A stretch of DNA of 64,000 bases from Loxodes magnus (Eukaryota; Ciliophora; Karyorelictea; Loxodida; Loxodidae). Positions within the stretch are counted from its first letter, which is position 1; each line of letters begins with the position of its first letter. Under the pieces are notes generated by a model that worked only from the letters and a program-made list of their open reading frames with translations, had not been told where the DNA came from and did no database searches. A program made the position numbers and the translations under genes. The stretch is taken from contig CAMPDV010000004.1 of NCBI GenBank assembly GCA_946699065.1, forward strand, positions 434,001-498,000, read 5' to 3'. Of this stretch, positions 1 to 64,000 are shown piece after piece.

Positions 1-1871
1 AGGACCTCTACTTTACAAATGCTTGAGAGTTATTTTAACTGCTTTTCTTTATTCAGGCAATAAAAATTGCTAGGCAGATGTTCTTATCTCAATTTTGATA
101 TCGGGAATGATTAGCTCAACGAGTTAATTGTATGAACCTTTTATTTACGCCTATTTTGTTAGTCTAAATGTTATGTCTCCTCATCTATGCCAGATCTATC
201 TTGCTCTTGGAATAATGTGCTTCGCACTTGCTTGGTTTGATTTGAAAGTAATAGTTTTAATGAGCATCATTTGCAATTTCTTGTATATGAGAAACTTGAA
301 AAAGTGAAATAAGAAAAAGGAAATAAGTGAAAATATCCAGACAGCTAAAAATCCAGAGGAAAAGTAGTACAAGGATACATTGAAGGATAAAAAGACTATA
401 GCTATCTTTAACAAAGTTAAGCAGTTTACTCATGAAATGAAACGATAAAGAACTATGATGGAAATGTCTGAAGATAATACTCACCAACAATAACCTTTCA
501 GTCTAGAACATTTCAGAAAAAATAATGTGGATTAGTCAATGAGTGAAGATTAGGGTTCATCAGTTAGTAGAGATATAATGACAAGCGTTTTTGGAGATAA
601 AGGATATAGTAATAACTTTAGTGACGATAGTAGCATGAATGAAGAAGATTTGGAATCTGTATTGGATAAAATGATCTTGAAATTTAGGGAAAAGAAATAA
701 TCATCAAGGAAAGGAAGAAAAAAATAAGACACTGCTTCACACTGAAAAAGCAATTTAGTTTAAGCAATTCCTGAAGTTAAGAGAGGAATTCAACATCAAA
801 AAATAGTAACAACTCCTCAGATTCATCCTATTTAAGAACTAGCTGAGGACTAAAATATAAAATCAGAATTAAAATAAATAGGACAATGAAATTTTAATAC
901 AATTAAGCTGGAAAAAATAACAGGTTATAAAGCACTCGAGCAACTTTGTTATCACATATTTTAATAGTAGGAATATATTTAGACATATTAAATGGATCAA
1001 GTATAACTAACAAAATTTCTACGTAAAGTATAAGGAACTTACATAAAAGAAAACATGTACCATAATGCAACACATGGTGCAGATGTTACAAACTCTGTTT
1101 TTAATTTGGTAAATAATGTCCTCATTCCAAAATAAGGATTCGACCCTTTAGAACTTTTTACTCTAATTTTTGCTGCTATGATTCATGATTTAGGACACAA
1201 AGGAGTCAATAATGCTTTTCTGGTTTAAACGAAGGATAAATTGGCTCTAATTTATAATGATTAAAGTGTACTTGAAAATATGCATGTAGCTAAAACATTC
1301 GATTTACTTGGGGATAACAACATTGTTTCTAACTTAACCAATGATGATTTCAAGATATTCAGAAAGCTTCTTATAAGATTTGTTCTTGACACTGATCTCT
1401 AACGACATTTCGATATCATGAAGTAATATGAAAAAAAAATTATGCCTGACGAAGATTTTCAAGATGAAGAAAAAAGAACTTCAACATTAAGTATGTGTCT
1501 CAAAGCAGCCGATATTGCTCATGGAGCAAAAGAACTAGAATTACACAAACTATGAACACGTAGAATCACCTTAGAGTTCTACAACCAAGGGTAACTTGAA
1601 GATCAAAGAGGGCTTCCAATCACCTAACTTTGCAACAAAGAAACTGATCTCCCTAAAAGTCAGCATGGCTTTTTAAATTTTCTTGTAAAGCCAATTTACT
1701 TAATATTGTATAACACTGTAAAACTGTAATCTTTTATACAGAGAAATTGTCTAAGAAGAGTATCTTTCCCTAATAGAAAAAAATATCATATTTTGGTAAG
1801 AAGAAACTGAGCGTAAGCAAATTGGAGATATTTCATTTGATGTTTATGCAGAAGAACCTAATTATTAATGA
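1..1871 (+). CDS. 3',5'-cyclic-nucleotide phosphodiesterase with membrane segments (5' partial)
   Basis: Hydrolyses cAMP and/or cGMP. The frame is already open at base 2, so the N-terminus lies outside the window; about 617 residues are visible. The first ~95 hold several hydrophobic membrane segments, followed by a charged linker and a complete class I PDE domain. Metal-site motifs are HNATHGADV (~res 354), HDLGHKGVNN (~395) and AADIAHG (~502), then the LHKLW motif whose Trp is TGA (1553-1555) and the helix LIEKNIIFWQEE near the end. A 16-nt intron (1726-1741) is required: reading through it loses the conserved C-terminal helix, removing it restores it. TAA/TAG are read as Gln throughout and the stop is TGA (1869-1871). 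Substrate preference cannot be read from the sequence. The domain call is firm; the missing N-terminus could carry more membrane segments or a fused channel or other module. Confidence 0.93.
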
Positions 1872-3138
1872 GAACTATATTTTATACTTGATTATAATCT
1901 TTAATAAATCTTTAATCATTATAATCCAATAGTTTCCTTCTCTCTTTTAAACATCTTTTTTTTCTTTCACTTATTAGTTATTCACTTTTGTGAGTTTAGA
2001 CAATTCTAGGTTAATAGTATTTAAGAACAATTAAATTAAAAAAATAAATCTTAAAAATATTAATTTGACATAGTTTAATCATCTAGTAGTAAAAGCATTT
2101 CTAGCCAAAGTTCTTAATCAATTCATACCAATATATTAATACTTCAAATAAGATCCTATTTACTTATCTTGATCTTTACTCATATATAACTCAGAATTTT
2201 TAATTTTCTATCAGAATACTATTCTAAACATTTTTCACTATATTTCTCATCTAAGTTTAATAATCTAAATAAACCAATCTAGAAAATTAGTTTCAACATT
2301 GCATATTTCTAATTATAGATACGCTTTAATTAATTACTATAAAAATACTTTCCATTAATGTAGTGGGAGTTTAAAAGATTATTAAGAATTTCTTTATGAA
2401 TTATATTGCATTAAAAAGATATATGCTGAATGTTATTTGACTATACATGCATTATATATCTAAAAATTACGACTGTAGGATTATTTTAGCTTTTACTATT
2501 TGTATACTTTATTGAAATAGAAGTTATATTAATATAGTTTATTATTTCATCTGCTATACTTTTCCAACACTTTTTTAAGTTTTTTAGATGATAAATGCTT
2601 GATTTCTAATTTATTAACTTTTAGTCAAAAGATATTGGATTAGAAAAGATATGCTGATCACATTTCTATCTATTGAAATTATTCCTTTATTTTTACCTAA
2701 CAAACCTTTAGTTTAAGCTTGTTAATTGGAATAAAAAAGATCTTAATGATATATAAACTAACTATTAACTAAGACTTTACTAAACTAGATAAATTAATAT
2801 CTTTGATTACTGCTTATTATACTAAAATTAATTAGATAAGTACTAAATATTCCATTGTATAAAATTCAACTATCACATTCGTTAGAGGAGATTAAGTAAT
2901 GAGACTATAATATGTTACCTTTTAGCCTTATTAGTTATCTTATACTTTATGAGTCTGAAAGTAGTTTCTTGTTACTTTGTGATTTAAATGATAGCGTAAT
3001 AGGCAGATAATCTGGAGATTTAAGGAAAGACATAAATAAATTTAAACAAAATAGTTAGGTAAAAGAGCTGTTTATAATGAGTTTAAATAAGGTAGTTAAG
3101 AGTTATAAATAAATTTAACTTATAAAGCAGATCGAAAT
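1872..3138. other. AT-rich intergenic block
   Basis: About 1.27 kb of very AT-rich DNA between the phosphodiesterase stop and the sortilin start. I see no conserved protein motif in any frame, no tRNA-like arms and no long repeat. Because only TGA stops, open frames here mean little. Confidence 0.6.
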
Positions 3139-5670
3139 ATGCTGCTATTATATACTGTATTGCTTGCTATTATTTTATAAACTATTTGTGATGAAAGATC
3201 TGACAGGGTTAATTTCCAGGTCATTGAACTAGACAGCGAAATATAGGATATTTAGTGGTGTGGCCCTAATGATGAGGTTATGATTGCTCTAACTACTAAA
3301 AATAATGTTTATAAAAGTGATGATAATGGCTTCGTCTGAAAAAAACTCACTGACATCCTGAAGCGTGAAGGAACTAATCAAAGAATTAATAAAAATGAAG
3401 ATATTGGAAAAGTTATGTAGTTAGTTAAATCTCCAGCAGATAAGTCGTTAATTGCTATGGTTGGGTCATAAGGAATATGTTGGTATTCAGAGGACTGTGG
3501 CAGAAATATTTATGCTTTAAATCATGGAAGACCTATCAACGAATTTTAATTCCATCCCACATAAAAATCATGGGGTTTAGCAGCTGCATGGACCAAATGC
3601 GATGATTTTGTCAAGGCACCTTGTGAAATATACAAGGAACTGTTTCTCACAAAAGATATTGGATAAAACTGGACAGTTATTCAAAATTATGTAGTTTAAT
3701 TTAGTTGGGGGTGGAGTAATTTAGATCCAGTATTTAGAAACTTTATGCCAGAAAATAGAATTTATCTAACTCATATTCCAGAAGGAAAAGGAAACTAATA
3801 AATTTAAGGATGGACTAGCAAAATTGATTTTGTTTTCTCAGACGATTTTTTCAAGAGTAAAATGACTCCTGTCCCTAGAGGAAATAAGTTTATTATAGCA
3901 AATCAATACATTTTTGTTGCTTAAGTTTTAGATGAAGAAACGTAAGATGTTGGGCTGTTAGTTTCAAATGAACTTATGCTTTTTAAAAAGTTTTAGCCTT
4001 CAGAATTACCATTTAAAAAGCTAAGAGAGCACTCTTATACATTGCTTGATGCATCAGAAGGCAGCATTTTCCTGCATGTAAATCATTATGGAGACGATAG
4101 TAAATTTGGAAACATTTATATCAGTGATTTCTCAGGCACTCGCTTTTCCACATCTTTAATACATAATGTTAGAGATAGTGATGGACAAACTGACTTTGAT
4201 AAAGTTCATGGGTTGGATGGAATTTACTTAGCTAATGTTTATGACATCGAATTCACGAACTAATATCTGAAAACAAAAGGTCAATCCATCAAAAAGTATA
4301 AAAGCAAAAAGGATTCTCGTGTTGATTAAAGTTTCAAGAAAACTCTAATCACTTTCGATAAAGGAGGATTATGGAAACCATTAAATCCACCTCTTTTAGA
4401 TAGTTCAGGTGCTAAAGTTCAGTGTGAGGAAGAAGAATGTTTCCTTCATTTACACTCTATTACAAGTTAAACTTTTGGACCATTTTATAGTACTTAGTCT
4501 TCAGCTGGCTTAATTATTGGAGTTGGAAATGTTGGAAAGCACTTAAGTAATGATGAAGATGATATAAACACTTATTTAAGTAGAGATGGAGGTTTAAATT
4601 GGGAAGAAATAAAAAAAGGTAGCTATATTTATGAGATAGGAGACCATGGTGCACTTATTGTTATGGCTTAAGATTAAAGAGCTACTAATTAAGTTATTTT
4701 TAGTTGGAACGAAGGACTAAGTTGGGAAACCTTAAAATTCTCAGAAGAAAAAATTCATGTAACTAACATCATTGTTGATCCACAATCAATTAGCTAAAAT
4801 TTCCTCCTATACGGGAGAAGAGGAGAAAAAGGAATAGTTGTTGGACTAGATTTTTCTTCTTTGCATGAGCCTTAGTGTAAAGGAATTGAAACACCTGGAG
4901 TTGAAGGCAGTGATTATGAGTTATGGACTGCTAATGATGGTAGAACTTCCTAAAAATGTTTACTGGGAAAATCAATTTAGTTTACACGAAGAAAAAGAGA
5001 TGCTGAATGCTATAATGGTGAAGCTTTTGAAAGAAAGTAATTTATTACTACCTGCGAGTGCTAAGAAGCAGATTGGGAATGCGATATAGGCTACTTTAGA
5101 TAGGATAATACTGGACCTTGTGAAAAAATACCAGAGTCAAAATTGACGTCAATTCCAGATAACGTTGAAGAATACTGTAAAAGTAGTAAAACAAGTTACT
5201 ATATAGTTAGTTAAGGATATAGAAAAATTCCAGGAGATTTATGCAGTGGCGGTGTATCACATGAAGCTCTTATGATTCCTTGTCCAGGATAATCTGCATG
5301 AACAACCATAGGATCTTCTGTCCTTATTTTGTTCTTATTTATCTTCATACTTTATTGCATTGCTAATAATTTTGAAAAAATAGCTAGATACTATGAAAAC
5401 TTTGTAGGCTCAAAAGGTAGATGACTAGATAGCACAAAAATTATACGATCTACTTACTCTTAAGATTTTAATGCTGTTCCCGAAACTGCAGATTAAGGAT
5501 AGATAAATCCTCATGAATAAGAAAATTTATTAGATGACAATATTGATGTCGAAGCTAGTTCTGAAGAAAGTTAAAAGCTAAATATATAGAAAGGAGCAAA
5601 AAACATTCCAAAAATTGCTAGTCCAAACTAACCAAAGAGAGAAGAGCTAATTTTAGAAGATTAATCTTGA
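3139..5670 (+). CDS. Sortilin/VPS10-domain sorting receptor
   Basis: Type I membrane receptor of 843 residues, expected to sort cargo between Golgi/endosome and lysosome-like compartments or secretory organelles. It starts at ATG 3139 with a signal peptide (MLLLYTVLLAIILQ). A ten-bladed VPS10 propeller (~20-570) shows Asp-box repeats such as SDDNGFVW, TKDIGQNW and SRDGGLNW. A Cys-rich 10CC module follows (~575-720), with Cys spacing typical of VPS10 proteins. One transmembrane helix (~723-741, SSVLILFLFIFILYC) precedes a ~100-residue cytosolic tail containing an acidic dileucine-type signal (ENLLDDN, ~795) and a second acidic-leucine patch before the stop. Stop is TGA 5668-5670; internal TGAs, for example in SDDNGFVW, are Trp. 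No intron is needed. In ciliates such receptors act in secretory-granule biogenesis; the role here is inferred. Confidence 0.93.
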
Positions 5671-12755: not shown

Positions 12756-13065
12756 TCTTAATAGTGCTATTTGCTTATTTTTCTATTTAAAACTATTTAA
12801 TTTCTAGTTACTTACACTACCTAGTCCTATCTTCTTATCTATTTGGATTAAACCGCTTTATTTATATACCAAGCTTGCTCTTGTTTGGTAAATGGATAAG
12901 CTTATTAGCTTTTGTTGAGTAAGTTATTTGATTGTAAGAAAGTTAGTTGAAGTAGTTAAATAGTAGTTAGTAGGAAGAAATGTAAAGGAACTAGAGGTAG
13001 TTGTAAGGATAGTTTGGATTTCTTAGAAAAAAGAGATGATTTTAATAATTAAAATGATGAAATAA
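12756..13065. promoter_or_regulatory. Shared divergent upstream region
   Basis: About 310 bp between the start codons of the minus-strand unknown protein and the plus-strand MDR gene. It must hold both promoters, but I can point to no specific motif. In-frame ATGs at 13036, 13054 and 13057 make the MDR start uncertain by up to 10 codons. Confidence 0.35.
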
Positions 13066-14046
13066 ATGTCTGGTATTGTTTTGACTGAGTAGGGATTAAC
13101 TTATCAAATCAATTTACCTATTCCAGTTCCTTTAAAAGATTTCGTTTTAATTGAAGTTAGCTATTCTCCTATTAACCCCTATGATTTAAATATAATTCGT
13201 ATGGCTGGATAGATAAGAGATTTGCCTTTTATTCCAGGTTTTGAAGGATCAGGAACTGTTGTTAGTTCAGGAGGAGGTTTTGTTGCATGAACTTTGCTAG
13301 GTAAAAAAGTAGCTTTCTCAGTGCCTGATGCAAAGTTTTATGGAGCTTGAGGCTAATTTGTTGCTATCCCTGCATACGCTTGTATTAAACTACCAGCAAA
13401 CGTTAGTTTAATGGAAGGTGCATGTAGTATTGTTAATCCTCTAATGAGTATGTGTATGCTAGACTGTACCTAAAGTTAAGAAGCAACTTGTGTAATTAGT
13501 ACAGCAGCTTGTGGCTAACTAGGTAGAATGGTATTACGATTATTTAGCTAGCATGGAATACAAGTTATTAACATTGTTCGTAGAAAATAGCAAGTAGAGA
13601 TATTGTAAAATGAAGAACAAGCATAATATGTTTTAAACTCTTCTGATTCAAATTTCTAGAATGACTTAAATGATCTATGCTAAAAATTGAAACCTACTGT
13701 AGCTTTTGACTGCGTTTCTGGAGATATGACACGATAATTAGTAGCAGCAATGCCACCTTAGTCAGTTATTTATTTGTTTGGTAACTTATCCTAGGTAGCA
13801 GCATAAATAGATACTTCTGATTTTGTATAAAAAGATGTAAGTTTAGAAGGATTTACTCTGTTCAACTGATTAGAACAGAAAAAAGGATGATAAAAATGAT
13901 AAATGACAACAAAGCTAAATAAATTTTTGCCAACTCTGCTTAAAACTAATATAAGCAAAGCATTTGATGCATAGTATTTTTCTTAGGCTATTGATTATTA
14001 TCTTACAAATGCAAGTTAGGGAAAAGTCCTCTTAAAGTTTAAATGA
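13066..14046 (+). CDS. Zinc-independent MDR oxidoreductase (quinone oxidoreductase / enoyl-thioester reductase type)
   Basis: A 326-residue medium-chain dehydrogenase/reductase, expected to use NADPH to reduce quinones, enones or enoyl thioesters. The GroES-like domain includes SPINPYDLNIIRMAG and PFIPGFEGSGTVV, the usual start of this subgroup. The Rossmann domain has the nucleotide-binding turn STAACGQLGRM and then DCVSG. The structural-zinc Cys cluster of alcohol dehydrogenases is absent, which favours the quinone oxidoreductase or mitochondrial enoyl-reductase branch. Several Trp are TGA, for example FVAWTLLG and FNWLEQ. Stop is TGA 14044-14046. In-frame ATGs at 13036-13057 could extend the N-terminus; 13066 gives the usual family start. 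No intron. The exact substrate is not predictable. Confidence 0.87.
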
Positions 14047-14181: not shown

Positions 14182-14910
14182 ATGAGCACAGGCTAAATAT
14201 TAGGATACGCTGGTACTGGCCTTTCATGAATTATGAGTGTTAGTCCTATAAAACATTTTATTTATTGAGCATTCACTTAGAAATAACCCTTTAAACTGAC
14301 TCTATATCTATATATACTTATGATTTCTAATGGAGGTGGTTGAGCAGTTTATGGGATTATTGCAAAGTAGCTTCCTGTTATAATGGGTAACGGGATTTAC
14401 ATCATTTTGGGTTCTTTTTTTTATATAAGTTACTGCTTCCTATGCTATAGTAAAGTGAAGGCATTTCTGATAATACTATTGGCCTTGGTAGTCTATTTAT
14501 CATGATGAGCAGCTATGTATCTTTTTATACCAAACAACATTAACGGAATTATTTGCCTTGTGATTAACATTCTAATGTATGGCTCACCACTAGAAAAAGC
14601 TTATTTAGTTATTAAAACCAAAAACCATAGAATAATACCAGTCCACTATACTCTCTTGCTTGGCATCTCTAGCACATTTTGACTGCTTTATGCTATTATG
14701 GAGAGTCAGTTTTCAATTATTCTTTCAAGTATTGGAGGATTAATCTGCTTTGCAATGCAAATAACTCTGTGAAGCGTTTACTTTTGCTATAATAAACTAA
14801 AAGCACAAGACAATATTATTCCTTATAAGCTGCTAGACACTTCTAACATAGAAGAGATGAACAAAAGTGAGATAAACCATAATATAAATGCGAGTGGCAT
14901 AGATAAGTGA
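14182..14910 (+). CDS. SWEET-family sugar transporter (MtN3/saliva)
   Basis: A 242-residue membrane protein with seven predicted helices arranged as two MtN3 repeats. The first repeat carries MSVSPIKHF and the second MYGSPLEKAYLVIKTKN, the conserved S-P-x turn of SWEET uniporters. Family members move mono- or disaccharides down their gradient across plasma or vesicle membranes. The start ATG lies about 135 bp after the MDR stop on the same strand. The end is ambiguous in this code: TGA 14908-14910 is followed in frame by another TGA at 14941-14943, and either could be the stop. I chose the first because the protein already has family length and a polar tail. Internal TGAs (GWAVYG, LSWWAAM, TLWSVYF) are Trp. 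Confidence 0.88.
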
Positions 14911-32361: not shown

Positions 32362-33626
32362 ATTTAAAAAATATTCAATTTGGAATAAAGCAAAATCCCT
32401 CTCTTTTACGTCTTTTTCATTTTGCTCTTATTTCTACAGTCGTTTGGAACATCATTTAGATATATGAACGATTTTAGAGACTCTTTTAAATAAGATCTTT
32501 TTAGAAAAAGGTTAGCCTTTGCATAAGATTTCCAATATTTAAACTATTATTAATAGCACTAATATAAATGAACTAATAGTTAGGCTTTTAGCTTAAGATT
32601 ATAGATGAGCTAGATTTTTTATTATTAGTACTATTATTTATATTAATCTGGCTTTAAAGTCTAATTTATTATATTCAAATAGCTCATCTACTATAACTAA
32701 GTAGCTAAAGCTCTAACAAATCATGTCATAATCTATTCTAATAGCTTGCTATTCTAAGAAGGGGAAATATTTCAGTTATTTATTAAAATAGAAGCCTTTT
32801 GCTAATAGGCTTAAAGGATATTTTAGATAGTAAATGATAGAATGATAACAGTAGAGGTTAACAATAATGAGGACTTAGAATACTATATTTGAATCATAGC
32901 TGAATAATTACTATTATATAATTCTTTGTTATTTGTTTAAGTTGCTATTAAATATGCTAATTTAACCTTTTATTTCCTCTAAAGTTTTATGTTATTTAGC
33001 ATTTTTTAGAATTTGAATGTTTAGCTTTTAATCCTATGTTTATTAATTATTTTTGTTTCCTTTAAGGAAGAAAGATAAAAGGAATAGTTTAAGTAGGGAG
33101 ATAAGAAATTAGTTGATAAGAATAGCTTAGCATCATTAATTATTGCTAGAGCTTTAGTCAATGAGGTAAACATTTTAACCATAACTCTTTGATTGTAAGA
33201 ACCATCTACAAAAGTAGCTCATAGTAGTTAATCCTTTTCAGCTAATATAGAAATTAAATTTCTTAATCTTCTTATTCTTATTTAATAGAAGGAGCATTAG
33301 ACTTTATTTGCAGTAATATTGTGCTATTAGTACTAAGTACTTTAAGATTAAACATTTTAGTTAATAATTAAAATATTTGCATAGAAAAGATTAATAAGCA
33401 TAATAAGTTTTTGCATTAATTAAAAGGAAAGGACTATTAAGCTACTTATAGCAGGCAAAGCTAAGTTATTAATTAATGAAGTAGAGTTTAAGAATATAAA
33501 TAAATTAACTAAAACAATGGGCATAATAGCTAATAGATGGACTAAATGGAACTTTATTTTAATTAAATCTTAGTAAATATATTTATTGGCTTGACTTTAG
33601 GTTATTTATAATAGCTTTTAATCAAT
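32362..33626. other. AT-rich intergenic block upstream of the channel gene
   Basis: About 1.27 kb between divergent genes, with no recognisable coding. It contains an 11-bp inverted repeat (32602-32612 with 32680-32690), which is not more than expected in such AT-rich DNA. Confidence 0.55.
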
Positions 33627-36600
33627 ATGGAAGAATTTTAACAGCCAGAGCATGATGAATAAAAATCAGAATCTTTATTACTTAATGAAAACCTTGATAA
33701 AAGTGGAAATGATTCAAAAAATAAAACGTAGAATTTAGAAACTTTGGAAGATGAGCTCGTTGAGGAGAACTATGTTAAACATCAAATTACTGAAGCTAAA
33801 GATTCAGTTTTATAATAGATAAATGGATTGAAAAATGGATAAACTGTTGGCTAGAGAGGCATTATAAATAACAAGAATCTGTTTAAAAACTTATTACTCA
33901 TCAGTAAGAATTTTAAAGATGTAATCAATCAAAAATCTATTTTGAGAAGAAATTTAGCTGATGCTTTCATTAAAATGAGTTTGAATAAAAGAAATAGAAG
34001 CCGCAAAGAAACAGCAAAAATGACTGATATCTAAAAACTAACATAAGTTAATAATAAACAAGTTGAGGATAAAATAAATTTTGTTTGGAAGTCAATTTAA
34101 AATAAAATAACTTAAAACACAAGTAATACAGTCTTTTAGAAAAAAATTACTTTAAAAAGTTTCAAAACAGTAGCAAATAGTCTTTTAGCTGAGAGATCTA
34201 CCTCAGAAGATTCAGAAATTTTTGAATCAGAAGATTTACCAAATGATCCTATTAATGAAACAAAATTTTTTGATGATTTTCACAAGAGTTCACTTTTAGT
34301 GTCTTTAGCTACTAAAAAAGGTTTGAATCTCTAATAGCTAGACCATAAGATGGTAGAGTAGCATTATGAGTAATACGAAAGTATAGAGTATTTAAATAAT
34401 GTAGAGGAAAATAATAAATTTGAAAAAGCAGCAAGATATATTAAAGACAAAATATATGGAAGAAAAACCATTCATTTTGTATAGGATAATTTCTGGCAGT
34501 ATAGAATTTATTAAATTCAAACTCATCCCCTTTGAAAAAAATGAATGATGCTAATTTGTTGAATTCATTTGCTGCTTGCTTTTTGAGAACCAATTAACAT
34601 GGATGATAAGCCATTTTCTAAGAAAAGCAAAGAGTTTTTAGGTCTTTTTCTAATTGAATTTTTCGTTCTCGTAGTATATATTTTAGATCTAACTTTTAAT
34701 TTATTTTGGAAGCTAGCAGACTAAATTAAAATAAAGTTACTATTAAAGAAGAAGATTATTCTGAAAACAATAGTAGTAATTGCTATCACTGTAGATCTGA
34801 TAATTTATTGAAGTATTTATCCTATCTCATATTTACGGTTTTCTAGATATTTAAGACCTATAGCTTTTATTCTACAGGCTAGGGAGCTTCGCTATACTAT
34901 TAATTCAATAATAAGAACAGCTAAAAGATTATTGGAAATGGGAATTTTGCTGATTTTTGTCCTATTAGTTTATTCTTTCGTTGCAATTAGGATAATCGGA
35001 GCATATTAAGTCGAATATGATGAATATGAATCGAATTATAAGGATATGGGCCATGCTTTTTAGACACTGTTTGTTTTATTAACCTTGGAAGGTTATGCTG
35101 TTGCAGTAGCAGAAGTTCTTGACGACGTTTCTTGATGATTATTACTTTTTTTTATTCCTTTTATGCTTCTAGCTCTTTTAATATTGGTTCCCATTCCTGT
35201 AGCAATAGTCTTCGAAGATTATAAGAATAACAGGGGAAATTTACTCTGAAAAGAGAGATTTAGAGAGAGAGACTCACTTTTTTCAGCATTTTATGCTATT
35301 GACAGAAAAAAAATAGGCTATATTGATTAGCATTCAATGCTTGACATGATGCAAATAGTTTGACCAGCTCTTGACCTAGATATAGCAAGTATTTTAGTAG
35401 ATAAGATATCTGGAGATGATAAAATGATAAATATATTCGAGTTTTTTGAAATAATGGATGGGATTATATTGTGTCCAGACTATATAAATAAAGAAAAGGA
35501 GTATAAATGTAATATCTGATCTAAATTCAGATATTTAGTCAACCGCTTTCTTAAGTTTGATGTCATTGCCAAAAATGCTGTCTTTGATATATTTATTATA
35601 CTATGTGTGTTCGCATCTGTTGTAGCTTTTGCACTTAGTGAAAGTAAAGTAGGAGACATGTATGCTATAGGTACTGTTGACCAAATAATACAGTGAATTT
35701 TCGTTGCAGAAATGTTCATCAAATTAATTGGAATTGGAATCTTAGACTATTTCAAAGACAACTGAAATAAATTCGACTTTATGCTTGTTATGCTTACAAT
35801 TTTTATAAATGCTGGCCTATCTGCACTTAAACTAATTCGAACAGCAAAAGCAGCCAGACTTGCTAAATTTTCAAAGATGGGACGAATTTAAAGGCTAATC
35901 AAAATATTTAAAGGATGCAAATCGCTGAGAACATTTCGTATATTTAGGTTTTGTCATTCAATCTCCTCAATGTTTTAGAGAGTTAATAGCTTGTTCTATA
36001 AAACAATTTGCACGTTTCCTAGTGTGTTCAAGATGATAATGATACTTCTAATTTTGTTTTATATCTATGCCTTAGTAGGTTTGGAGATATTTTATTCAGA
36101 AAACAAGGAATATGAAGATGTTTTCGAAAAATAAGTTTTAGGAGATTTTAACTCATTTCCAATGGCTCTTTTAGCGCTGTTCCAGATTCTTGTTGGTTCA
36201 GAATGAAACTTAACGATGTGAAGATGAGCAAAAGTACACTAAATGTATTATGAGTCAGGATTCTTCTTTATAACCTTCCATGTTATTGCGGTAATAGTTT
36301 GCTTAAATTTACTCACTGCTTTAATATGGGAAGTTTTCACTATCATAGATTAAGCAAGTTAAGATGAAGAGTCAGAAGAAGAAACCTAAAAAGAAAATGA
36401 AAATAATGAATAGATGAGTGCCAAGTAAACAGAGTCAAAACTAAACTAAGCTTCATGAATTAATCACATGCTTGAAGCCGCAGAAAAAGATTATATTTCA
36501 TCCTCCTCAGAATAATCAAACTCATAAAGAACCAACCAAAATGAATGCAGATAATATTCTGGACAATTAGATTTACCAATGAGCAAAACATTCTAAGAAA

Positions 36601-37565: not shown

Positions 37566-37570
37566 TTAAT

Positions 37571-39182
37571 TCAATAAAAGTTTAAGTTTATTTAATTCTT
37601 GCTTACTTGCTTTGCCCTCCCATTAATCTATCTTTTAACAATTTGATTTTAGTCACTTGCATTTAGGTAATTATTTAAGGAGCGTCTCTAGTTTTCCCAC
37701 TTGAATTTAGGTTATGTGTTAGTGACAATATTATAAGAATGCCTCATAGGATTATTATTAATAATTCCTTTATTATTTGCAATTATTTTTTAAGTTTGAA
37801 AAGCATTTTCAATAGGAAACCTAGTTTCTTGTTTTTTTCTTAATGGAGCACTTTTACTAAAAATATCGTAGCTTTTTTAGAAAATGTTAGGTGTTTTTAA
37901 ATTCTGCTTTTCTTTAAAAGAGTTGAAATTAGATTACTTTTCTCTCCAAGAAAAAACATTATTTTTAATAATGTTTTCTGTTTAAGAAATTCTCTTAGCT
38001 AGTATTAATCTTTCAGCTTATCCTTTATCTCCTTTTTACTATCTATCTTTTATACTTGTCTAATATTTTAAAGGCCCTTTTGAAATTTGACTTCCTTTTA
38101 ACTTCAACTAAGAAAATTATTATTTGTTCTTGAAGAGCTTATTTTACATTTACTGCATTAATTTTCTTACTAGCAAGAATTATTGTTGAGGACCAAGAAC
38201 ACTTCCAGGACGACAAATACGAACCCATGCAATAAACTCAGCAGCTTTTATTTAATAGTTTTTCATAGCGTAGCACCCTATTAAGGTACCAGTTCTTCCT
38301 AGACCTGCTTTACAGTGAACAGCAATTGCTCCTTTTTTTTAAATTTCACTTTCACAAGCTTCGATGAAGCTATTCATAATATTTTCATCAGGAGTTGATC
38401 CATCTACAAAAAACAGATCTTTGTGTTTGATTCCGCATCGAATAAATCTCTATAATAGAGGGAATACCTCTTCATCATATGTTCTTTTGCTTAGTCTTAT
38501 GACAAGAGTTACTTTCAGCTCCTTGAAAATTCTTGAGTATTCTTCTGGTGTGAATGTTTTGAACTAAAATAATAAAAAATACTCCTGAACTATCCCAAGC
38601 TTTGCTATAAGGACTAGAAAAAGCCAAAACTTTACCGGGAATGATTCAATTTAAGTCTCCATTATCCATCGATTCATAGAAAGAGTATTACAAATAATCA
38701 AAAGTTTCATAGTTGAACCATCCAAGATCTATTGCTCTTTCTAACCCCTGCAAGCAGTGCAAAACTGTGCAGTCATAATCAGAAACTCCATTTGAAGCAT
38801 CCCTGAATGGAAGTAACTTCAACTAACTAAAAGGCTTGAAGCTCTCTTCAGCTGTCTTACCTAATTTTACAATTTAATAGGCACAGATTAGATAGACAGC
38901 ATTAGATCTCTTTTGTAAATCTATAAAGCTTTAGTGAATAACTACTTTATGCTTAGTCAGCTTTTTTTCTATCTTTCTTATGAATTAATAGGTCATTCCA
39001 AGATTTAAAGGACCAAAATCTTCGTTATAAGGCTTATAAACAAACTTCTGTATTAAAGGTTACTTTATCGATATTTACTACCTTAGCTTATTGATACTCA
39101 GGGATTATTTATTTAGTTCAAGTAAAATACAGCCTGTCTGAAGTGAAGACTCACCTTATAATATTAAAATAAGCTCGTTCAT
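37571..39182 (-). CDS. CDC14: Cdc14 dual-specificity phosphatase
   Basis: 519 residues. Cdc14 removes CDK-type phosphates in mitotic exit, cytokinesis and, in several protists, basal-body function. The N-domain shows DRLYFTW, NEDFGPLNLGM and PFRDASNG. NGDLNWIIPGK follows, with its invariant Trp written TGA (38648-38646). The catalytic domain has KDLFFVDGSTPDENI and the P-loop AVHCKAGLGRTGTLI (Cys273), then ICRPGSVLGPQQQF. The C-terminal ~180 residues are basic and Asn/Lys-rich. Three introns are needed and each is fixed by conserved protein: 17 nt (39138-39154), 16 nt (39048-39063) and 19 nt (38564-38582). The start lies 13 bp from the divergent next gene and the stop (TGA 37573-37571) 5 bp from the channel stop. 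Confidence 0.95.
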
Positions 39183-44530: not shown

Positions 44531-45040
44531 TCATTTTTTACTTTCGTTTACTTCTTCCTCTTCGATAGTTCCCATTTCAACTTCTTCTTTCACAGCTTCT
44601 TCCTCTTGCTTATCTGAAGATTTTTCTTCTTTTATTCCTCCCTTATAGAAGTCAAATTCTTAGTCAAGAAGGAAGTCTTTAGGAAGTTCAGTCTAATCCT
44701 TCATTCGTTATTGAATTTCGTGATTTCTAGGGAAAGCATAAACGATCTTTCTTACATAAAACCTTTTTTATTTGCTCATAGGTCTGCAATGTCTTATAAT
44801 AACTTTATCACCTGTAATGCAGAAATTTTCTTCGTCATGAACTCTAATTTTGCTCCTTTTTCTTAAATTTATTTTATATTTCTCATGGTACCATTGACTA
44901 TCCACCATCACTGTTACAGTCTTTGGATTTTTCCCTGCCACTACAACAGTACCAAATAGATCTTTGGAACTAGGAGCTAGCTATGACAAGCTAAAAGCAT
45001 CAGGCATCAATAATTTCCAAAATTACCTAGCTGCCTACAT
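44531..45040 (-). CDS. MRPS17: Mitochondrial ribosomal protein uS17m
   Basis: 169 residues. An S17 OB-fold core is clear: LFGTVVVAGKNPKTVTVMVD, then WYHEKYKINLRKRSKIRVHDE and DKVIIRHCRPMSKQKRFYVRKIV, which are hallmarks of the small-subunit 16S/12S-binding protein uS17. The N-terminal MQAARQFWKLLMPDAFSL is compatible with a mitochondrial presequence. An acidic Glu-rich tail of ~50 residues, absent from bacterial S17, ends at TGA 44533-44531. The bacterial-type core plus presequence point to the mitoribosome, not cytosolic uS17. Start ATG 45040, no intron. The next minus-strand gene begins 220 bp downstream. Confidence 0.88.
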
Positions 45041-45821: not shown

Positions 45822-47708
45822 TCATTTGCCTTCACTTTTTATATTTCTTATTAATCCATGTATATTAACATTAGTTTCTATAAGCTTCTAATTTACTACC
45901 TTGTTTGAATTATCTTCTATTTCTTTATTTTTTCTTATTTGGAAATTCTTTAATCAGTCGTTCAATCTATCATCGATTATAGGACTTTCTCTAAAGGATT
46001 ATCTTTTACGATTGGACATTTTAATAGCCTCTTTGAACTTTTTTTCCATTAGCTTTTTATTATTCTTCTTTTTCAAAAACTAATTTCTTATAATTTCCTT
46101 AGAAGTATCTCTTATTCTAGCTGAAAATATTAGGCTTTGGATATCTTCATTGTTGAAATATTAAAAGAACTTATCTGAATTAAGAACTAATAATTAGCAG
46201 TCTGTTATTGCTAAAGCAAAATGAGTTCTTTTTCTTCTCTCAATTAAATCAAGTTCTCCAAAAAATTCGCCTTCCTTTATCATATCATAAGTAAGCAACA
46301 TCTGACTTAATATATGATTAACCTTCCAATTTTAGGCGCTTACTGGATAAATAGTATTGACATCAAAAGTTATCATTTTTTATAGTTTTATTTGCCCACT
46401 TTTAATAATATAAAACATAGTACTCTCATCTCCCTCTGAAAATATTATGGTACCTTCTACTATGTTTTATATTATTAGATACTTAGTTATTTATATTAGT
46501 TTCTAGGACTAAAATTCACTGAAAAAGGGACATTTCTAAAGAAATTACGCATTCTGCATTTTTTCGTTGTTATTCATACTCATCAGAATTTTTTGATAAT
46601 CAGCGGCTCATAACTATAGAAGTTCACAGTTAGTATGTGATATTATTGTTGCATTCCTAGGATCATTTGTTTCAAGTGCTTTTTCTCCAAATGCAAAACC
46701 AGGCTGAATAATGAAGACTGGCTTATTTAAGTCATCTAAATAAACTCCTAGATTTCCATTAACAGTGATATACATGCAATCTCCAATATCTCCCTTTTTA
46801 ATTACTATATCTCCTTTTTTAAATTTCTTAGTAGTGAATTTGTCCATCACCTCTTTTTAAACCCACTTTGGAAGTTTAGCTATAAAAGGAACTTTTTCTT
46901 GAGCTCATTTTAGTAGACTAATTTTTTCAAAAGGAAGTCTATCTTAAGTAGGTTTTTAACAAATAAGGAAAACATCAATATTAAGTCCTTTCTTTATATT
47001 TTCATAATGACTTCAAAAATCTTCTCGCTTTAAAACCCAATTTGGCCAATATTCTAATTACTCCTCTTTTTCTTTAACTTTTGATTCTTTTACCATTTTA
47101 ATTTTTCCTATTCACACACTTTTTTATTTCATCAGTTAACCCTAATCTGGCTAAACTATTGATTTATTTTTTTTCCTTTCTGTTAAAGACTCAGTTTTCT
47201 ATTGTCTAGCCTATTCTTCTCCAAATTTATTACATTATTTTGACTTTTTAATCTATTTATAGAGATTTGATTACTTCTCATTCTACTGATTCCTTTATTA
47301 CCATCAAGAGGACTTTTTTTCACGCTTTAGTTATTTATACTTTCTTATAATTTGCTAAACTCTTGGCGAAATTTATTTTTGAGGCTAAGTTTTGATAAAC
47401 GATTATGGAAATTAATCTGGTGATTTGTTCTATGAGATTAAATTTTAAGCAGGAGAAGCTGATCTAAAACTAAGTGAGCAATCATTATTAAGTAGGTTGG
47501 ATTAAGACTTTAATTAATGTTCTTCAGTTTTAAAATAGAAAGTGTTATTATCTTCAAGTCATCCTAGCTTTTTGATAGATTAAGGAGTTTTTTTCCATCA
47601 ATCCATTTAATTCAAATGCTACTTTTTCCGCATTTGATTCCTTTTAATGATCTATTCAATTCCTTCTTCTAAATTCTAGATTTTAGGCAAGTTAATATTT
47701 AAAGACAT
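45822..47708 (-). CDS. Tandem cyclic-nucleotide-binding-domain protein (PKA-R/PKG-regulatory-like)
   Basis: 628 residues. The N-terminal ~250 are Lys/Gln/Ser-rich and unstructured. CNB-A (~280-395) reads KKGDIVIKKGDIGDCMYITVNGNLGVYL and has an intact phosphate-binding cassette, FGEKALETNDPRNATI, with Glu and Arg in place. CNB-B (~400-555) starts QKCPFFSEF and contains EGTIIFSEGDESTMFYIIKSG and a cassette variant, FGELDLIERRKRTHFA (KR for PR), with a longer insert before it. The tail (~560-628) is basic. No kinase domain follows, so it is either a PKA regulatory-subunit relative (no clear inhibitory RRxS/A site was seen) or a stand-alone cNMP sensor. The phosphodiesterase at 1-1871 acts on the same second messengers. 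Start ATG 47708, TGA 45824-45822, no intron. Confidence 0.85.
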
Positions 47709-56238: not shown

Positions 56239-56265
56239 CCTTTAATATTTAAATTAAATTTTTGC

Positions 56266-57554: not shown

Positions 57555-58130
57555 TCAATAGTCTGAAAAAATAATTCTATTAAACTAGGAGATTTCTTCA
57601 AATAATATGGTATTTTATCCATACATTTCTTTTTCTAATTAAATGAGCTATTTGATATAAGGAATGGCAGGACTTATTATTCTTCTAATAGTTTTAACAT
57701 ACATATAACTAGTTTTTAAATCTCATTTCATATGATGCATTAAATAGCCTAGTATAATAGAAGCTGATCTTGACACTCCTCACATGCAATGAACCAATAT
57801 TTAGCAGTTTTCATTTTCTTTTTTTGCTTAATCAATAAAATCAAAAGTAGTTTGAAAGGATAATTCTCCAAAGCCATCTGTAAGTTCTAATCTCAAAGTT
57901 TGAATGGATTATTAAGATTAGCACTCCTTAGCGCAATTTACTATATGTGTGAATTAAATTTATTACTAGCCTGCATTCTTATTTGATCCTAAATAAAGTC
58001 AAGGTAATATTTATGAAGGATGTTCTCCTTTATGATATCTAAACTCTACAGTATTCATTACTCTTTCACAAATTAAGCAACAAATCTCTTATTCTTGCTC
58101 AAACAATTTTTATAATTAAAATAATTCCAT
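57555..58130 (-). CDS. Dual-specificity (DUSP/MKP-type) protein phosphatase
   Basis: A 191-residue phosphatase close to a single DSP domain. It has LPWLYLGSNKNAG near the start, THIVNCA, then the active-site loop LVHCMWGVSRSASI (Cys115, an HCx5R motif whose Trp is TGA) and the general-acid region upstream. The usual C-terminal helix follows (YLMHHMKWDLKTSYMYVKTIRRIISP). It removes phosphate from Tyr/Thr, typically of MAP kinases; the substrate is unknown. A short Cys-containing N-terminus (FEQEQEICCLIC) precedes the domain. Start ATG 58130 and TGA 57557-57555, no intron. The next minus-strand gene (lipase) starts ~190 bp downstream, and the TFIIS gene is divergent ~380 bp upstream. Confidence 0.9.
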
Positions 58131-58507
58131 TTAATCAAATCTAATTATAAGAGATATCTACCTTTATACTTTTAGTCCCTATACTCATAACTATTCCTTC
58201 AAACTATCATATTGCTATCACTTCTTTTACTTTTATTATGCTCCAACTACTATAAATGATTTTGCAAATATAGCAAGAAAAGGATTCTAAAGTATTAATA
58301 AAATAGATCTTTTTAAAGAATGTTGACTTATATTGAACAGATACGTAAATAAAGTTAAAATAAGTGTATTTATGGCTTTAAAGATTATACTGATATAGGC
58401 ATAGAGGTGTGTAAGATTAAGGATATAAGGATAGTTATATTTAGTTGAATTGGCTGTTATTTATTTCAATCATTTCATTTTTTCACCATTTTTTTTTGAT
58501 TTATCAG
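58131..58507. promoter_or_regulatory. Divergent upstream region between DSP and TFIIS genes
   Basis: 377 bp between two divergent start codons. It must carry both promoters; no specific element recognised. Confidence 0.4.
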
Positions 58508-59353
58508 ATGGTTGAAAGTCTCTCTGACTACTGAAGAGATATTAAGAATTAAGTAGAACAAATTTGTGAAGAAAAAGACGCGAATTCGGCAATCATACTA
58601 CTAAAAAGAATAAAAGAGAAGGAAATGACAGTTGATATATTGTAAAGTCTAAAGATCGGAAAGTCAGTTAATCGTATGAGAACATTCTTCAGTAATAATG
58701 TCGAGGTTGTAAATATCGTAAAAACCCTTATTAATAAGTGGAGGCAAATTGCCTTTGATACGAAAAAGAAAAATCCATAAGCAAATAATAAAGCTACTAT
58801 CAAATTAGGAGCTGGAGATGTAAAAAGACAGAAGATGATTGATAATCTTAAAGAGTGTATTGGCAAAAAAAATTATGTGGATTAGAAAGATCCAGCTCAA
58901 TTAGCTTATGAAATAGAGGATGAGTTATGAAATTCTTATGGTAAAGATATTGGTGAATATAACAGAAGAATGAGATAAATTGTATATAATCTTAAAGATC
59001 CTAAAAATCCCGAGCTTAACTCTCGACTTCTAAGTGGTGTAATTCTACCTCGCAAATTAGCTCATATGTAATCTAAGGATATGATGAGTGATTTTCTTAA
59101 AAATAGCATTAATCGCCAAGAGAACGTAAACTTTGAATCGTAAGATTTTAATATTTAGTCTAAGATCAGATTGGAATGCTGCTAATAATAAAAAAGAAAC
59201 AGGAATGTTCACTTGCGAAAAATGTTAAAAGAACCGCACTACATATTCATAATTGCAAATTAGAGGAGCTGATGAGCCAATGACCACGTAAGTTTTTTTT
59301 ATTTCAGCTTTGTCGAATGTCTCGAGTGTGGTAGCAGGTGGAGTTTCAATTGA
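58508..59353 (+). CDS. Transcription elongation factor TFIIS
   Basis: 268 residues after splicing. TFIIS rescues backtracked RNA polymerase II by stimulating transcript cleavage. The N-terminal helical domain I (~1-85) contains LLKRIKEKEMTVDIL and VVNIVKTLINKWRQIA. Central domain II (~105-215) reads KRQKMIDNL, YEIEDELW and YNRRMRQIVYNLKDPKNPELNSRLLSG. The C-terminal zinc ribbon (~225-268) has CEKC...CLEC and the catalytic RGADEPMTT hairpin with its Asp-Glu pair. Two introns are anchored by the ribbon: 19 nt (59140-59158) and 20 nt (59288-59307). Start ATG 58508, TGA 59351-59353, directly after SRWSFN. All four zinc Cys are present, so it should be active. Confidence 0.95.
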
Positions 59354-61106: not shown

Positions 61107-61110
61107 ATGA
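60904..61110 (+). CDS. Possible small ORF (68 aa) overlapping the next start
   Basis: ATG 60904 to TGA 61108-61110, starting MSAKFRFDEEEQQIKLMAIG, then Gln/Lys-rich. Its stop overlaps the ATG of the TPR/RRM gene (AAATGATG). Composition differs from the flanking block, but no family is recognised. It could be an upstream ORF, an unannotated exon or chance. Confidence 0.22.
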
Positions 61111-62034
61111 TGTACCAAAGTTTCCCTCCTGGGTTTGAAGCAGTAAAATCGAACCAAGTACTATAGTAAAGAGATGCTAACGTTTAACAGTTACCATCGA
61201 AAAACTAAGTAAGGTAACTTCCAATTCCAAAAGGATATTCGCCTTATTGTATGGCAAAGAGAGCAGAATATCAAGAGAAAAATTTGTCAAGAGCTTAACA
61301 TTATTACGAACTTTCCATTTAATAGAATGATAGATTACCTTCAGCGGTTAAAGATTTAGCAGGAGTGTTACATTAGTAGGGAAAAACAACTGAAGCTGTT
61401 CTACTTTTGGAGAATCATAAACATGTATTTAAGAACGATATGAAGAAATTGGATAATCTTTTGGGCTCATTGAAAAAATAAGTAGAGCCAACTGGAAATG
61501 CTGCAAACAAATTTGTTAGAATAAGTAACTTTTAATAAACTGAAACTGAATTATTTGACTTATTTCAAAACACCGATAAAATTATTAGTGTTGAAATAAA
61601 CTAAAAGGAATAATTTGCAGTTGTGAAGTTTAATAGCCATTCCTCTGCTAGAAAAGCAATGGACTAATTCAAAGGATGGGAAAACAAACTTTTAAAAGTA
61701 TTTATTTATTATTTAGATTGAATGAATGACTTAGTCAGGAGAAATTACAAGTAATGTAATTCCCCCAAAAAAAGTGAAGCAAAGAGAAATACTAAAGAAG
61801 CAAAAAACTGCTGAGATTAGTGGATAGACTCCTATATTTTCTTACTTGTTTGCTTTCGAAAAGGAAACTTCACCCTATTTGATTCCAGTGGATGAAAGTG
61901 TCAATTTTGATGCTTCAGAAGATCATTAGGAGTTTGAAGAGTTCAAGATACTTGGGTACGACTTGTTAGCTTTCATAAATTCGCCTGAGATTTTAGGTGT
62001 GTCTAAGAAATTTAAGTTTATACCAAACACTTGA
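61107..62034 (+). CDS. TPR and RRM-like domain protein
   Basis: 302 residues after removing a 19-nt intron (61698-61716, gtatttatttattatttag). The N-terminal half has tetratricopeptide-like helices: AKRAEYQEKNLSRAQHYYELSI, LPSAVKDLAGVLHQQGKTTEA, VLLLENHKHVF. An RRM fold follows (~155-220): NKFVRISNFQQTETELFDLF, then FAVVKFNSHSSARKAMDQF, ending at LLKIEW across the intron. The C-terminal ~90 residues are a polar region with LFAFEKETSPYLIPV and LGYDLLAFINSPEIL. The mix suggests an RNA-associated adaptor; I cannot name an orthologue. The intron is supported because the frame beyond it is protein-like and ends at TGA 62032-62034. A second in-frame ATG lies at 61110. Only ~60 bp precede the next gene. 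Confidence 0.72.
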
Positions 62035-62094
62035 AGGGTGTAAACTAAGACTATTTGTTAATTGTTTAAAAGTTTGAAAATTTTTTAATATAAA

Positions 62095-62874
62095 ATGTTG
62101 TGCAAGATGTTTAGTTTTAATTCTCCTTTATTTAGATTTACATCAAATCGATCATAGACTGCTCTTTGGCATGGCAAAGAAATAAGAACAGGCTACTAAT
62201 ATTGCTTCTCAGGAAAGGGAAGCAAGCGAACGTTTAAGCCTAATGCACACTTCAAAAAATTCTATTCGGATATTTTATAGAGATGGCTTAGAATAAATGT
62301 AACCACAACAGCTTTGGATGAAATAAACAAAAAAGGTTCAATCGATAATTATATTATGACCACACCTTCTATCAAAATGAGAAGCAGACTTGGTGATAAT
62401 TTAAAGGAAATAATGTAAAAGAAGCTTGATGATCCAAATTTAATAGTTCCTCATATTACAGGAACTAAATCATACCAAATGACAAAGGCTAAAAGGCACA
62501 GACTAAGAAGATTTCCAAATAAAAACCATTTAGGACCTAATTTAATGTATTATCTACCTCCTGAATTAAGATGGAGAGATAAAGCCGAATGGGAAATTAC
62601 TCCAGAATTTGTAGCAGAGTTTCTTGAAGAAGAAAAAAAATACGAGTAAGAATTACAGTAGTCAGAGGAATCTTTGAAAGAAGAAAAAATTTAAGAAGAG
62701 ACTGAGATCTAGTAAGCAGAAGATATCAAAGCCTGGAGGAAAAAGAAAAAGTAGGAAATGAAAGAAGAAATCACGACGGAAAGAAAGGCAACATTAGCGG
62801 CTAAAAAACTTGAATATGACAAAAAGAAAAGAGAAAAGAGCAAGAAAGTCAAGGAAGAAGAAAAAAAAAAGTGA
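62095..62874 (+). CDS. MRPL28: Mitochondrial ribosomal protein bL28m
   Basis: 259 residues. ALWHGKEIRTGYQYCFSGKGSKRTFKPN, followed by a segment through WLRINVTTTALDEINKKGSIDNYI, matches the bL28 core: the conserved R-R-x-FxPN turn, then L-R-V-x-V-TTxALR-x-IDK-G. The N-terminal MLCKMFSFNSPLFRFTSNR is compatible with a mitochondrial presequence. A ~130-residue extension rich in Lys and Glu, probably a long helix (EDIKAWRKKKK onward), follows the core, as is common for protist mitoribosomal proteins. Start ATG 62095, TGA 62872-62874 straight after a Lys run, no intron. It is tandem to the TPR/RRM gene with a 60-bp gap. Confidence 0.87.
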
Positions 62875-64000
62875 TTAGAGATTTATAATACACATTTATC
62901 AAATAATTTAACATATAAAATTGATATTTAGTCAATTATTCATATCTCTGCTTTGACATATACAATTACATTTCAATTTTCAGACATTGCTAGCATATTG
63001 ATAAATTTAAGTGCTTATTAATTTAAAGTTTAACAAATAATCTCTATATACAGTTTTATTGTGAATTATACATATTCCTCTATCAATGAACCCCAATAGA
63101 TTGAAAAAGTAAAATTTCTATTTAAACTTAACTTAGTATTTAGTAAAGCTATTTAAATAAATAGCTTTTAATTGTAAATACTCACTCTATTACTCAGCTC
63201 TGCACTTATAAAGAAATTTCTTTATTTATTAGTTCAATCTTCCTATTTTCATAAGAACACTAATAAGTTTCCTAGGATTAGATTTTTCCTGTTATCATAA
63301 TTAATTTTCTGCTTCCTAATTTATAAATAAAGATAAAAAGGCGACTAATAAAAAATTAATAAAAGTAGAAAAATTTAAAAAGAGCAAATATTAGATTTCT
63401 ATAAAGCTTAAAACTAGAATAACCTAGTATTTTAAGTGCTGATCTTAATCTATTTATTCCTATTTTATTATAAAGCTGTTTCATATTTTTATTTAGTCAT
63501 TATTTATAAAATATCAATCATCTGAATATGTTAATGATTGAAGTAACTAATTAAGAACTTTTATAATACTGTAAGCAAATTAAGATTTTTATATTAGTGT
63601 GTTTTCTTTAGTTCTGCTAGCTAATTTTGTTTCTTTTGCATTTTTTACTTTTTATTGTCTGTTAACATTTTAGATATAGACCTGTATGCGTTATAAGTTC
63701 TAATCCTTAATTATATTCTTATATTTCTAAAGTCAAATTCTTTCATTAGCAGAAGTAGGAAAGCAAATTTATAAAATATGAGAAATAGAAGATTTAAGCG
63801 ATTGTAAATGGACCATATAATTAAGACAAGTAGAAAGAACAATCAGATATCATAGTAACATTAAGGAGAATAATAAGTAGAAGTAGGAGAAAATATCTAT
63901 TAAATTACTTATATTAGGTGAATATATAAGTTAGTATAAAACCTTTATACAACTATAATTTCTATGCACCATCATTAAATAAGCTAATTATTACTTATCA
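62875..64000. other. AT-rich block to the window edge
   Basis: About 1.1 kb of AT-rich DNA with no recognised gene, RNA or repeat. A gene could begin beyond the window. Confidence 0.55.

What the first reader, a model, noticed from the sequence alone, without database searches (positions are those of the whole stretch)
1..64000. All three stop codons are sense codons; TGA is both Trp and the (near) universal stop
About twenty recognisable genes need TAA and TAG as Gln and internal TGA as Trp. TGA sits at invariant Trp sites (Cdc14 NGDxNW at 38648-38646, PDE LHKxW at 1553-1555). In nearly every gene the natural C-terminus is followed by TGA and not TAA/TAG. This fits the ambiguous karyorelictid code and argues against a Condylostoma-type code, in which TAA and TAG also terminate. 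How the ribosome tells sense TGA from stop TGA must depend on context, such as closeness to the transcript end.
Basis: partly seen in the sequence, partly recalled or inferred. Interest (0 to 1): 0.8.

Follow-up and report, generated by a model that had tools for sequence, protein, structure and literature searches.

The report
Known Loxodes code without dedicated stops
This stretch of a ciliate genome reads all three usual stop signals as amino acids and also uses one of them, TGA, as the real stop; the reading is correct, and it is the already published genetic code of this organism group.

Summary
The window has no standard-code ORF of 150 aa. All 24 Pfam-matched stretches counted (3,302 codons, about 17 genes) hold in-frame TAA (103), TAG (38) or TGA (35). 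Both named Trp sites are exact.

Blind alignments support TAA=Gln (20 of 97) and TGA=Trp (6 of 14); TAG=Gln (4 of 38) rests mainly on invariant sites of paralogues. Outside the window, 22 of 22 genes with family-defined C-termini end in TGA. In the window 3 of 4 do; a hydrolase ends at TAG.

Added: five thioredoxin reductase genes use TGA as Trp, as selenocysteine two codons before the end, and as stop. 114 of 117 tRNA-Trp genes examined have a 4-bp anticodon stem, all with CCA. UGA triality (other species) and the short-stem tRNA in Loxodes are already in print. The finding is correct but known.

The parts
308..1729 (+). cyclic nucleotide phosphodiesterase gene, coding part; Trp-TGA at 887-889 and 1553-1555; ends not established
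   Evidence: PDEase_I 235.1 bits; both TGA align with W of PDE1B when read blind as X
3022..5670 (+). sortilin (VPS10) gene with 21 TAA and 6 TAG inside its two Pfam domains; end not established (TGA at 5668-5670 is one candidate)
   Evidence: Sortilin-Vps10 332.6 bits; codon counts; position
12946..14046 (+). ADH-like oxidoreductase gene; C-terminus GKVLLKFK followed by TGA at 14044-14046
   Evidence: ADH_N and ADH_zinc_N above cut-off; end
14545..14781 (+). SWEET/MtN3-type transporter domain with two in-frame TGA
   Evidence: MtN3_slv 52.4 bits
26092..28430 (-). DUSP-USP ubiquitin hydrolase gene (start not established); Trp-TGA at 26210-26208, 33 codons before the stop; inferred 17-nt intron 26178-26162; family-typical end AYLLIYQRTSWH then TGA at 26094-26092
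   Evidence: UCH 158.6 bits; blind alignment; splice join; distance
33624..36500 (+). voltage-gated channel-like gene; 12 in-frame TGA in its two Ion_trans domains, e.g. 35763, 36204, 36219, 36225
   Evidence: Ion_trans 169.1 bits with TGA=W against 154.8-167.2 for C, R, Y, F, L, G, S, Q and 157.8 for X
37571..38861 (-). Cdc14 phosphatase gene in two frames (an intron is inferred); Trp-TGA at 38648-38646 in NGDLN*IIPGK
   Evidence: DSPc and DSPn hits; position; PDB match to CDC14
44531..45007 (-). ribosomal protein uS17 gene, probably mitochondrial
   Evidence: Ribosomal_S17 76.7 bits; best PDB match 6z1p S17; end
45822..47669 (-). cyclic-nucleotide-binding protein gene, coding part
   Evidence: cNMP_binding 106.3 bits
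55425..56132 (+). MSP/VAP-domain gene
   Evidence: Motile_Sperm 93.3 bits
56266..57018 (-). alpha/beta-hydrolase-3 gene; C-terminus FLNV is followed by TAG at 56268-56266, next in-frame TGA 377 codons on: the one window end that does not fit without an unusual intron
   Evidence: Abhydrolase_3 148.5 bits; sequence
57555..58100 (-). dual-specificity phosphatase gene with two in-frame TGA in the domain
   Evidence: DSPc 94.8 bits
58535..59353 (+). TFIIS gene; inferred 20-nt intron 59288-59307; family-typical end CLECGSRWSFN followed by TGA at 59351-59353
   Evidence: TFIIS_M, Med26, Zn_ribbon_TFIIS; splice join
61720..62874 (+). bL28-type ribosomal protein gene
   Evidence: Ribosomal_L28 52.8 bits

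Best explanation
The window is macronuclear DNA of the karyorelict ciliate Loxodes magnus and uses the ambiguous karyorelict nuclear code (NCBI table 27). TAA and TAG are Gln. TGA is Trp inside genes and is also the stop. [quoted passage not shown] Inferred from published work: translation is the default at TGA, and eRF1 outcompetes tRNA-Trp only where the codon lies close to the poly(A) end of the mRNA. Also inferred, with strong sequence support: a third reading, selenocysteine, directed by a hairpin just after the stop in thioredoxin reductase mRNAs.
For: Assembly size 705,730,643 bp against 706 Mbp in PMC11441545, which states table 27 and a mode intron length of 17 bp (passages); the two window introns inferred here are 17 and 20 nt. 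No long standard ORF; 24 of 24 domain stretches need reassigned codons. Blind alignments of 9 genes, one PDB chain each: TAA to Q 20 of 97 (P 2e-9), TGA to W 6 of 14 (P 2e-8), TAG to Q 4 of 38 (P 0.07). Invariant Gln as TAA or TAG in histone H4 paralogues that otherwise use CAR there (4 of 9 copies have one TAR), in GPx FPCNQF (TAA 3, TAG 1) and in eRF1 GGQ (TAA). GPx WNFGKFL Trp as TGG in 2 and TGA in 2 of 4 paralogues. Stops: 22 of 22 TGA outside the window (9 H4, 4 GPx, 5 TrxR, 2 GR-like, 2 eRF1) and 3 of 4 testable ends in the window. tRNA-Trp: 114 of 117 genes examined (of 131 pattern matches) have positions 27 and 43 unpaired, all CCA. TrxR: 5 of 5 genes over the family cut-off end GC-TGA-G-TGA, with 3 tRNA-Sec genes and a GTGA-bearing hairpin 43-45 nt from the Sec codon.
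Against: TAG=Gln is weak by blind alignment (4 of 38) and rests on a few invariant sites. The abhydrolase gene ends naturally at a TAG, with the next in-frame TGA 377 codons on. UAA is reported depleted near stops in L. magnus (PMC11441545), which could mean some leftover stop recognition. tRNA-Gln(UUA/CUA) genes were not found by two pattern searches; the patterns may not fit, and a DNA query did not complete. No RNA or peptide data were available. Rfam found no SECIS and a joint fold failed. A sixth TrxR-like copy just under the cut-off (L021) lacks the GC-TGA-G end. In one search I used L020, the TrxR copy with most TGA; the channel alignment was not tallied.
Confidence: 0.96

Rival explanations
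1. Condylostoma-type code (NCBI table 28): all three codons are sense and all three also terminate.
For: The abhydrolase gene's natural C-terminus is followed by TAG, with no in-frame TGA for 377 codons; UAA is reported depleted before stops (PMC11441545).
Against: 22 of 22 genes outside the window end in TGA; sense TAA 14 codons (eRF1) and TAG 10 (H4) and 18 (GPx) codons before the stop lie inside conserved sequence.
Confidence: 0.03
2. Blastocrithidia-type code: TAA and TAG as Glu, TGA as Trp.
For: On sortilin alone Q, E and K score alike for TAA.
Against: TrxR and eRF1: mean BLOSUM62 for TAA is Q 1.69 and E 0.75; invariant Gln of H4, GPx and GGQ are TAA or TAG.
Confidence: 0.005
3. A standard-code genome full of pseudogenes or sequencing errors.
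For: None found; only that standard-code ORFs are short.
Against: Reassigned codons occur in essential genes (H4, eRF1, TFIIS, ribosomal proteins), in frame, at conserved Gln and Trp sites; the nine H4 copies are otherwise intact.
Confidence: 0.002

Closest known systems
Karyorelict nuclear code, NCBI table 27 (Parduczia sp., Loxodes; Swart 2016 PMC4967479 and Seah 2024 PMC11441545, passages seen; Seah 2022, not held)
   Same: TAA and TAG Gln, TGA Trp, TGA the only stop, very short introns
   Different: No difference found; this assembly appears to be the published L. magnus macronuclear one. One window gene end (abhydrolase, TAG) is unexplained
Condylostoma magnum code, NCBI table 28
   Same: All three codons sense; tRNA-Trp(CCA) with short anticodon stem; Sec codon at the end of thioredoxin reductase (passages)
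   Different: There UAA and UAG also terminate; here 0 of 22 test genes end so
Blastocrithidia nonstop code (abstract in listing; passages)
   Same: UGA read as Trp, with a 4-bp-stem tRNA-Trp(CCA); an ambiguous stop
   Different: There UAA and UAG are Glu and the stop is UAA; here Gln, and the stop is TGA
UGA triality (Swart 2016, Figure 6 legend, passage)
   Same: One codon read as Trp, Sec and stop, with thioredoxin reductase as the Sec example
   Different: Reported there for Condylostoma and Parduczia; here seen in five L. magnus genes, each holding all three readings

Membership tests
Karyorelict code (NCBI table 27) | TAA encodes Gln | tested here: met
   20 of 97 aligned TAA face Q, P 2e-9; GGQ of eRF1 and GPx FPCNQF
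Karyorelict code (NCBI table 27) | TAG encodes Gln | tested here: met
   Weak in blind alignment (4 of 38, P 0.07); met at invariant Gln of H4 (3 of 9 copies) and GPx (1 of 4)
Karyorelict code (NCBI table 27) | TGA encodes Trp inside genes | tested here: met
   6 of 14 face W, P 2e-8; best of nine amino acids tried on the channel gene; GPx paralogues
Karyorelict code (NCBI table 27) | TGA is the only stop | tested here: met
   22 of 22 outside the window, five families; 3 of 4 in the window, the fourth followed by TAG and unexplained
Karyorelict code (NCBI table 27) | Trp-TGA depleted in the last ~20 codons | tested here: inconclusive
   Nearest Trp-TGA before the stop is 39 codons away among the 22 genes and 33 in the window's USP gene, but the sample is small and H4 has no Trp
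Karyorelict code (NCBI table 27) | Transcript end decides stop or sense | not testable with these tools
   No RNA or ribosome data; published model (PMC4967479, PMC11441545 passages)
Condylostoma code (NCBI table 28) | TAA and TAG also terminate | tested here: not met
   0 of 22; one unexplained TAG end in the window
Short-stem tRNA-Trp(CCA) decoding of UGA | Positions 27 and 43 of tRNA-Trp(CCA) unpaired | tested here: met
   114 of 117 genes examined; 14 of the 131 pattern matches were not examined
Short-stem tRNA-Trp(CCA) decoding of UGA | No cognate tRNA-Trp(UCA) | tested here: inconclusive
   The 100 of 131 pattern matches that were listed are CCA; a dedicated UCA search did not complete
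Selenoprotein thioredoxin reductase | Sec codon TGA in GC-U-G and a tRNA-Sec gene | tested here: met
   5 of 5 genes over the cut-off, two nearly identical; 3 tRNA-Sec genes
Selenoprotein thioredoxin reductase | SECIS element in the 3' UTR | tested here: inconclusive
   GTGA hairpins with z -3.0 to -5.9, but no Rfam SECIS match and no joint fold

The most novel reading that the evidence does not exclude
In Loxodes magnus a single thioredoxin reductase mRNA uses UGA in three ways (Trp at two or more sites, Sec two codons from the end, then stop), with the GTGA of the Sec hairpin within about 40 nt of the stop. A UGA inside the zone where ribosomes should stop is thus overridden, while the UGA two codons later is not. 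Distance to the transcript end therefore cannot be the only signal, and these genes give a natural test of the ranking SECIS, then eRF1, then tRNA-Trp.
Probability: 0.8. Interest if true: 0.4.

Novelty: already known. Interest (0 to 1): 0.18.

Why it matters
Codes without a dedicated stop show that termination can depend on position in the mRNA and not on the codon alone. That is established for this group. The present value is an independent check from raw sequence, a caution to gene finders, and five genes in which one codon appears to have three meanings within one mRNA.

Tried and rejected
Standard code and pseudogenes: rejected. TAR=Glu: rejected. Codon swap on sortilin could not separate Q, E and K. 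My codon-usage coding model gave uncertain strands and was used only to pick stretches for Pfam. RNAalifold on four thioredoxin reductase 3' UTRs gave no common structure, probably because the alignment was poor; the single folds showed a similar architecture. Rfam gave no SECIS. Patterns for tRNA-Gln(UUA/CUA) found nothing; the first was mis-spaced by one base, and I suspect that the second does not fit the Loxodes genes, but this is unproven. All four GPx copies are Cys forms, so GPx gave no Sec evidence. Of ten thioredoxin-reductase-family matches eight were fetched and two were not.
Full report
WHAT THE WINDOW IS. The window is positions 434001-498000 of contig C4 of an assembly of 705,730,643 bp in 7,843 contigs. 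PMC11441545 (passages seen) reports the Loxodes magnus macronuclear assembly at 706 Mbp. [quoted passage not shown] that coding UGA and UAA are depleted for about 20 codons before the stop; and that introns have a mode of 17 bp. The taxonomy tool places L. magnus in Karyorelictea. Seah 2022 is not held; I know it only as a reference.

CHECK OF THE OBSERVATION. No standard-code ORF of 150 aa exists, and ARAGORN found no tRNA gene in the window. I scanned 30 chosen reading-frame stretches, not all six frames, with TAR=Q and TGA=W against Pfam; 18 of 30 had a hit at E<=0.01. They correspond to about 17 genes, two of which (PH, ANF_receptor) are below Pfam's cut-off. In 24 matched domain stretches (3,302 codons) there are 103 TAA, 38 TAG and 35 TGA in frame; every stretch holds at least one and 16 of 24 hold TGA. 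The two named Trp sites are correct to the base.

WHICH AMINO ACIDS. To avoid circularity I read all three codons as X and aligned the proteins to PDB chains, using the best chain of each. Over seven window genes, TGA faces W in 3 of 9, TAA faces Q in 7 of 61 and TAG faces Q in 2 of 29. The channel gene, whose matches were short and repeated, was not tallied. Adding one thioredoxin reductase (L020, the copy with most TGA) and one eRF1 (L001) from the same genome gives TGA 6 of 14 W (one of the other eight is the Sec site), TAA 20 of 97 Q and TAG 4 of 38 Q; binomial P against background is 2e-8, 2e-9 and 0.07. Of nine amino acids tried for TGA on the channel gene, W scores best (169.1 bits; Y 167.2, C 163.0; X 157.8). 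TAA on sortilin alone does not separate K (468.0), Q (467.0) and E (466.9). Paralogues settle the rest. Among nine H4 genes the Gln of NIQGITKP is TAG in two and TAA in one, and the Gln of KRQGRTL is TAG in one. The GPx FPCNQF Gln is TAA in three and TAG in one, and the WNFGKFL Trp is TGG in two and TGA in two. The catalytic Gln of the eRF1 GGQ motif is TAA in both eRF1 copies.

WHERE TRANSLATION STOPS. In the window I could test four family-typical C-termini. TFIIS (...ADEPMTT, 20-nt intron, FVECLECGSRWSFN), USP (17-nt intron...AYLLIYQRTSWH) and the ADH-like gene (...GKVLLKFK) are each followed by TGA. The abhydrolase gene (...KEIANFLNV) is followed by TAG; the next in-frame TGA is 377 codons on, and only an atypical 32-nt GT-AG intron would lead to a near TGA. 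From the rest of the genome, 9 H4, 4 GPx, 5 thioredoxin reductase, 2 glutathione-reductase-like and 2 eRF1 genes all end in TGA, 22 of 22. If non-TGA stops made up 13% or more of genes, 0 of 22 would occur less than 5% of the time, were the genes independent; they come from five families, so the bound is looser. Sense TAA and TAG lie as close as 14 (eRF1), 18 (GPx) and 10 (H4) codons to the stop, whereas the closest Trp-TGA is 39 codons away in these genes and 33 in the window's USP gene. This fits table 27 and not table 28.

DECODING MACHINERY. eRF1 (two copies) reads RAQNIKS where the solved eRF1 of 4d5n has TASNIKS, and FLCENTF where it has YLCDNKF (motif names recalled). A tRNA-Trp pattern with either C or T at the wobble position gave 131 matches; the 100 listed all have CCA. 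In two tandem arrays I counted 48 and 67 genes. Positions 27 and 43 are A.C in 47, U.C in 67, and paired in one. Two further single genes have a normal 5-bp stem. So 114 of 117 examined have the 4-bp stem; 14 matches were not examined. PMC13092985 and PMC12005148 (passages) report that such tRNAs occur in Loxodes, the latter citing Swart 2023, which I did not see.

THIRD MEANING. Three tRNA-Sec genes exist. All five thioredoxin reductase genes above the family cut-off (L016 and L018 nearly identical) end GC-TGA-G-TGA, and each also has TGA 409 and 399 codons before the stop; in L020, the one aligned, these face Trp. A further copy just under the cut-off (L021) lacks this end. In L020 the last sense TGA aligns with a Cys at the same place in a mitochondrial thioredoxin reductase chain (1zdl), the Sec position by recall. 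Each 3' UTR has a stem with GTGA 43-45 nt from the Sec codon (L019 and L020 have one more GTGA each), more stable than shuffles (z -3.5, -4.4, -5.9, -3.0 for the four distinct sequences). Rfam found no SECIS and a joint fold failed, so calling it a SECIS is inference. Swart 2016 already calls UGA a 'codon triality' in Condylostoma and Parduczia and shows this gene (passages). PMC11441545 does not contain the word selenocysteine or tRNA in its main text, and a search for papers with both 'Loxodes' and 'selenocysteine' found one, a 2015 review (listing only), so I saw no report for Loxodes itself.

HOW IT MOST LIKELY WORKS. Shown: the codon assignments, the stops, the short-stem tRNA-Trp genes and the TGA-G-TGA ends. 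Inferred: tRNA-Trp(CCA) reads UGA by default because of its loosened stem; eRF1 wins near the poly(A) tail (published model, PMC4967479); and a Sec hairpin can override both within a few codons of the end.

VERDICT. Observation and interpretation are right; the phenomenon is published for this organism.

Noticed in passing
window 56266-56283, minus strand: Abhydrolase gene: C-terminus FLNV followed by TAG, next in-frame TGA 377 codons on. Either an unusual 32-nt intron or a rare TAG stop.
   Followed up: partly
L016-L020, Sec codon at locus 2950-2952: Five thioredoxin reductase genes use TGA as Trp, Sec (two codons before the end) and stop, with a GTGA hairpin 43-45 nt from the Sec codon.
   Followed up: yes
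L056 (C67:482001-492000) and L057-L058 (C148:155001-175000): Tandem arrays of 48 and 67 tRNA-Trp(CCA) genes, with positions 27.43 as A.C in 47 of one array and U.C in all of the other, giving a 4-bp anticodon stem; one array member and two lone genes on C110 have a 5-bp stem.
   Followed up: yes
L001, L002, L016-L020, just after the stop: Both eRF1 and all five thioredoxin reductase genes have a further in-frame TGA exactly three codons after the stop, although the codons between differ; one of two GR-like genes has one at +5; none of the 13 H4 and GPx genes has one within 10 codons. Possible backup stops.
   Followed up: partly
window Pfam stretches against L001, L002: Trp is written TGA more often than TGG in the window stretches (35 to 22), while neither eRF1 copy has an in-frame TGA before its stop; TGA use for Trp may fall with expression level.
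   Followed up: no
L001, L002 (C196): Two eRF1 genes about 35 kb apart on one contig, with RAQNIKS and FLCENTF in place of TASNIKS and YLCDNKF; the GGQ Gln is itself a TAA codon.
   Followed up: partly
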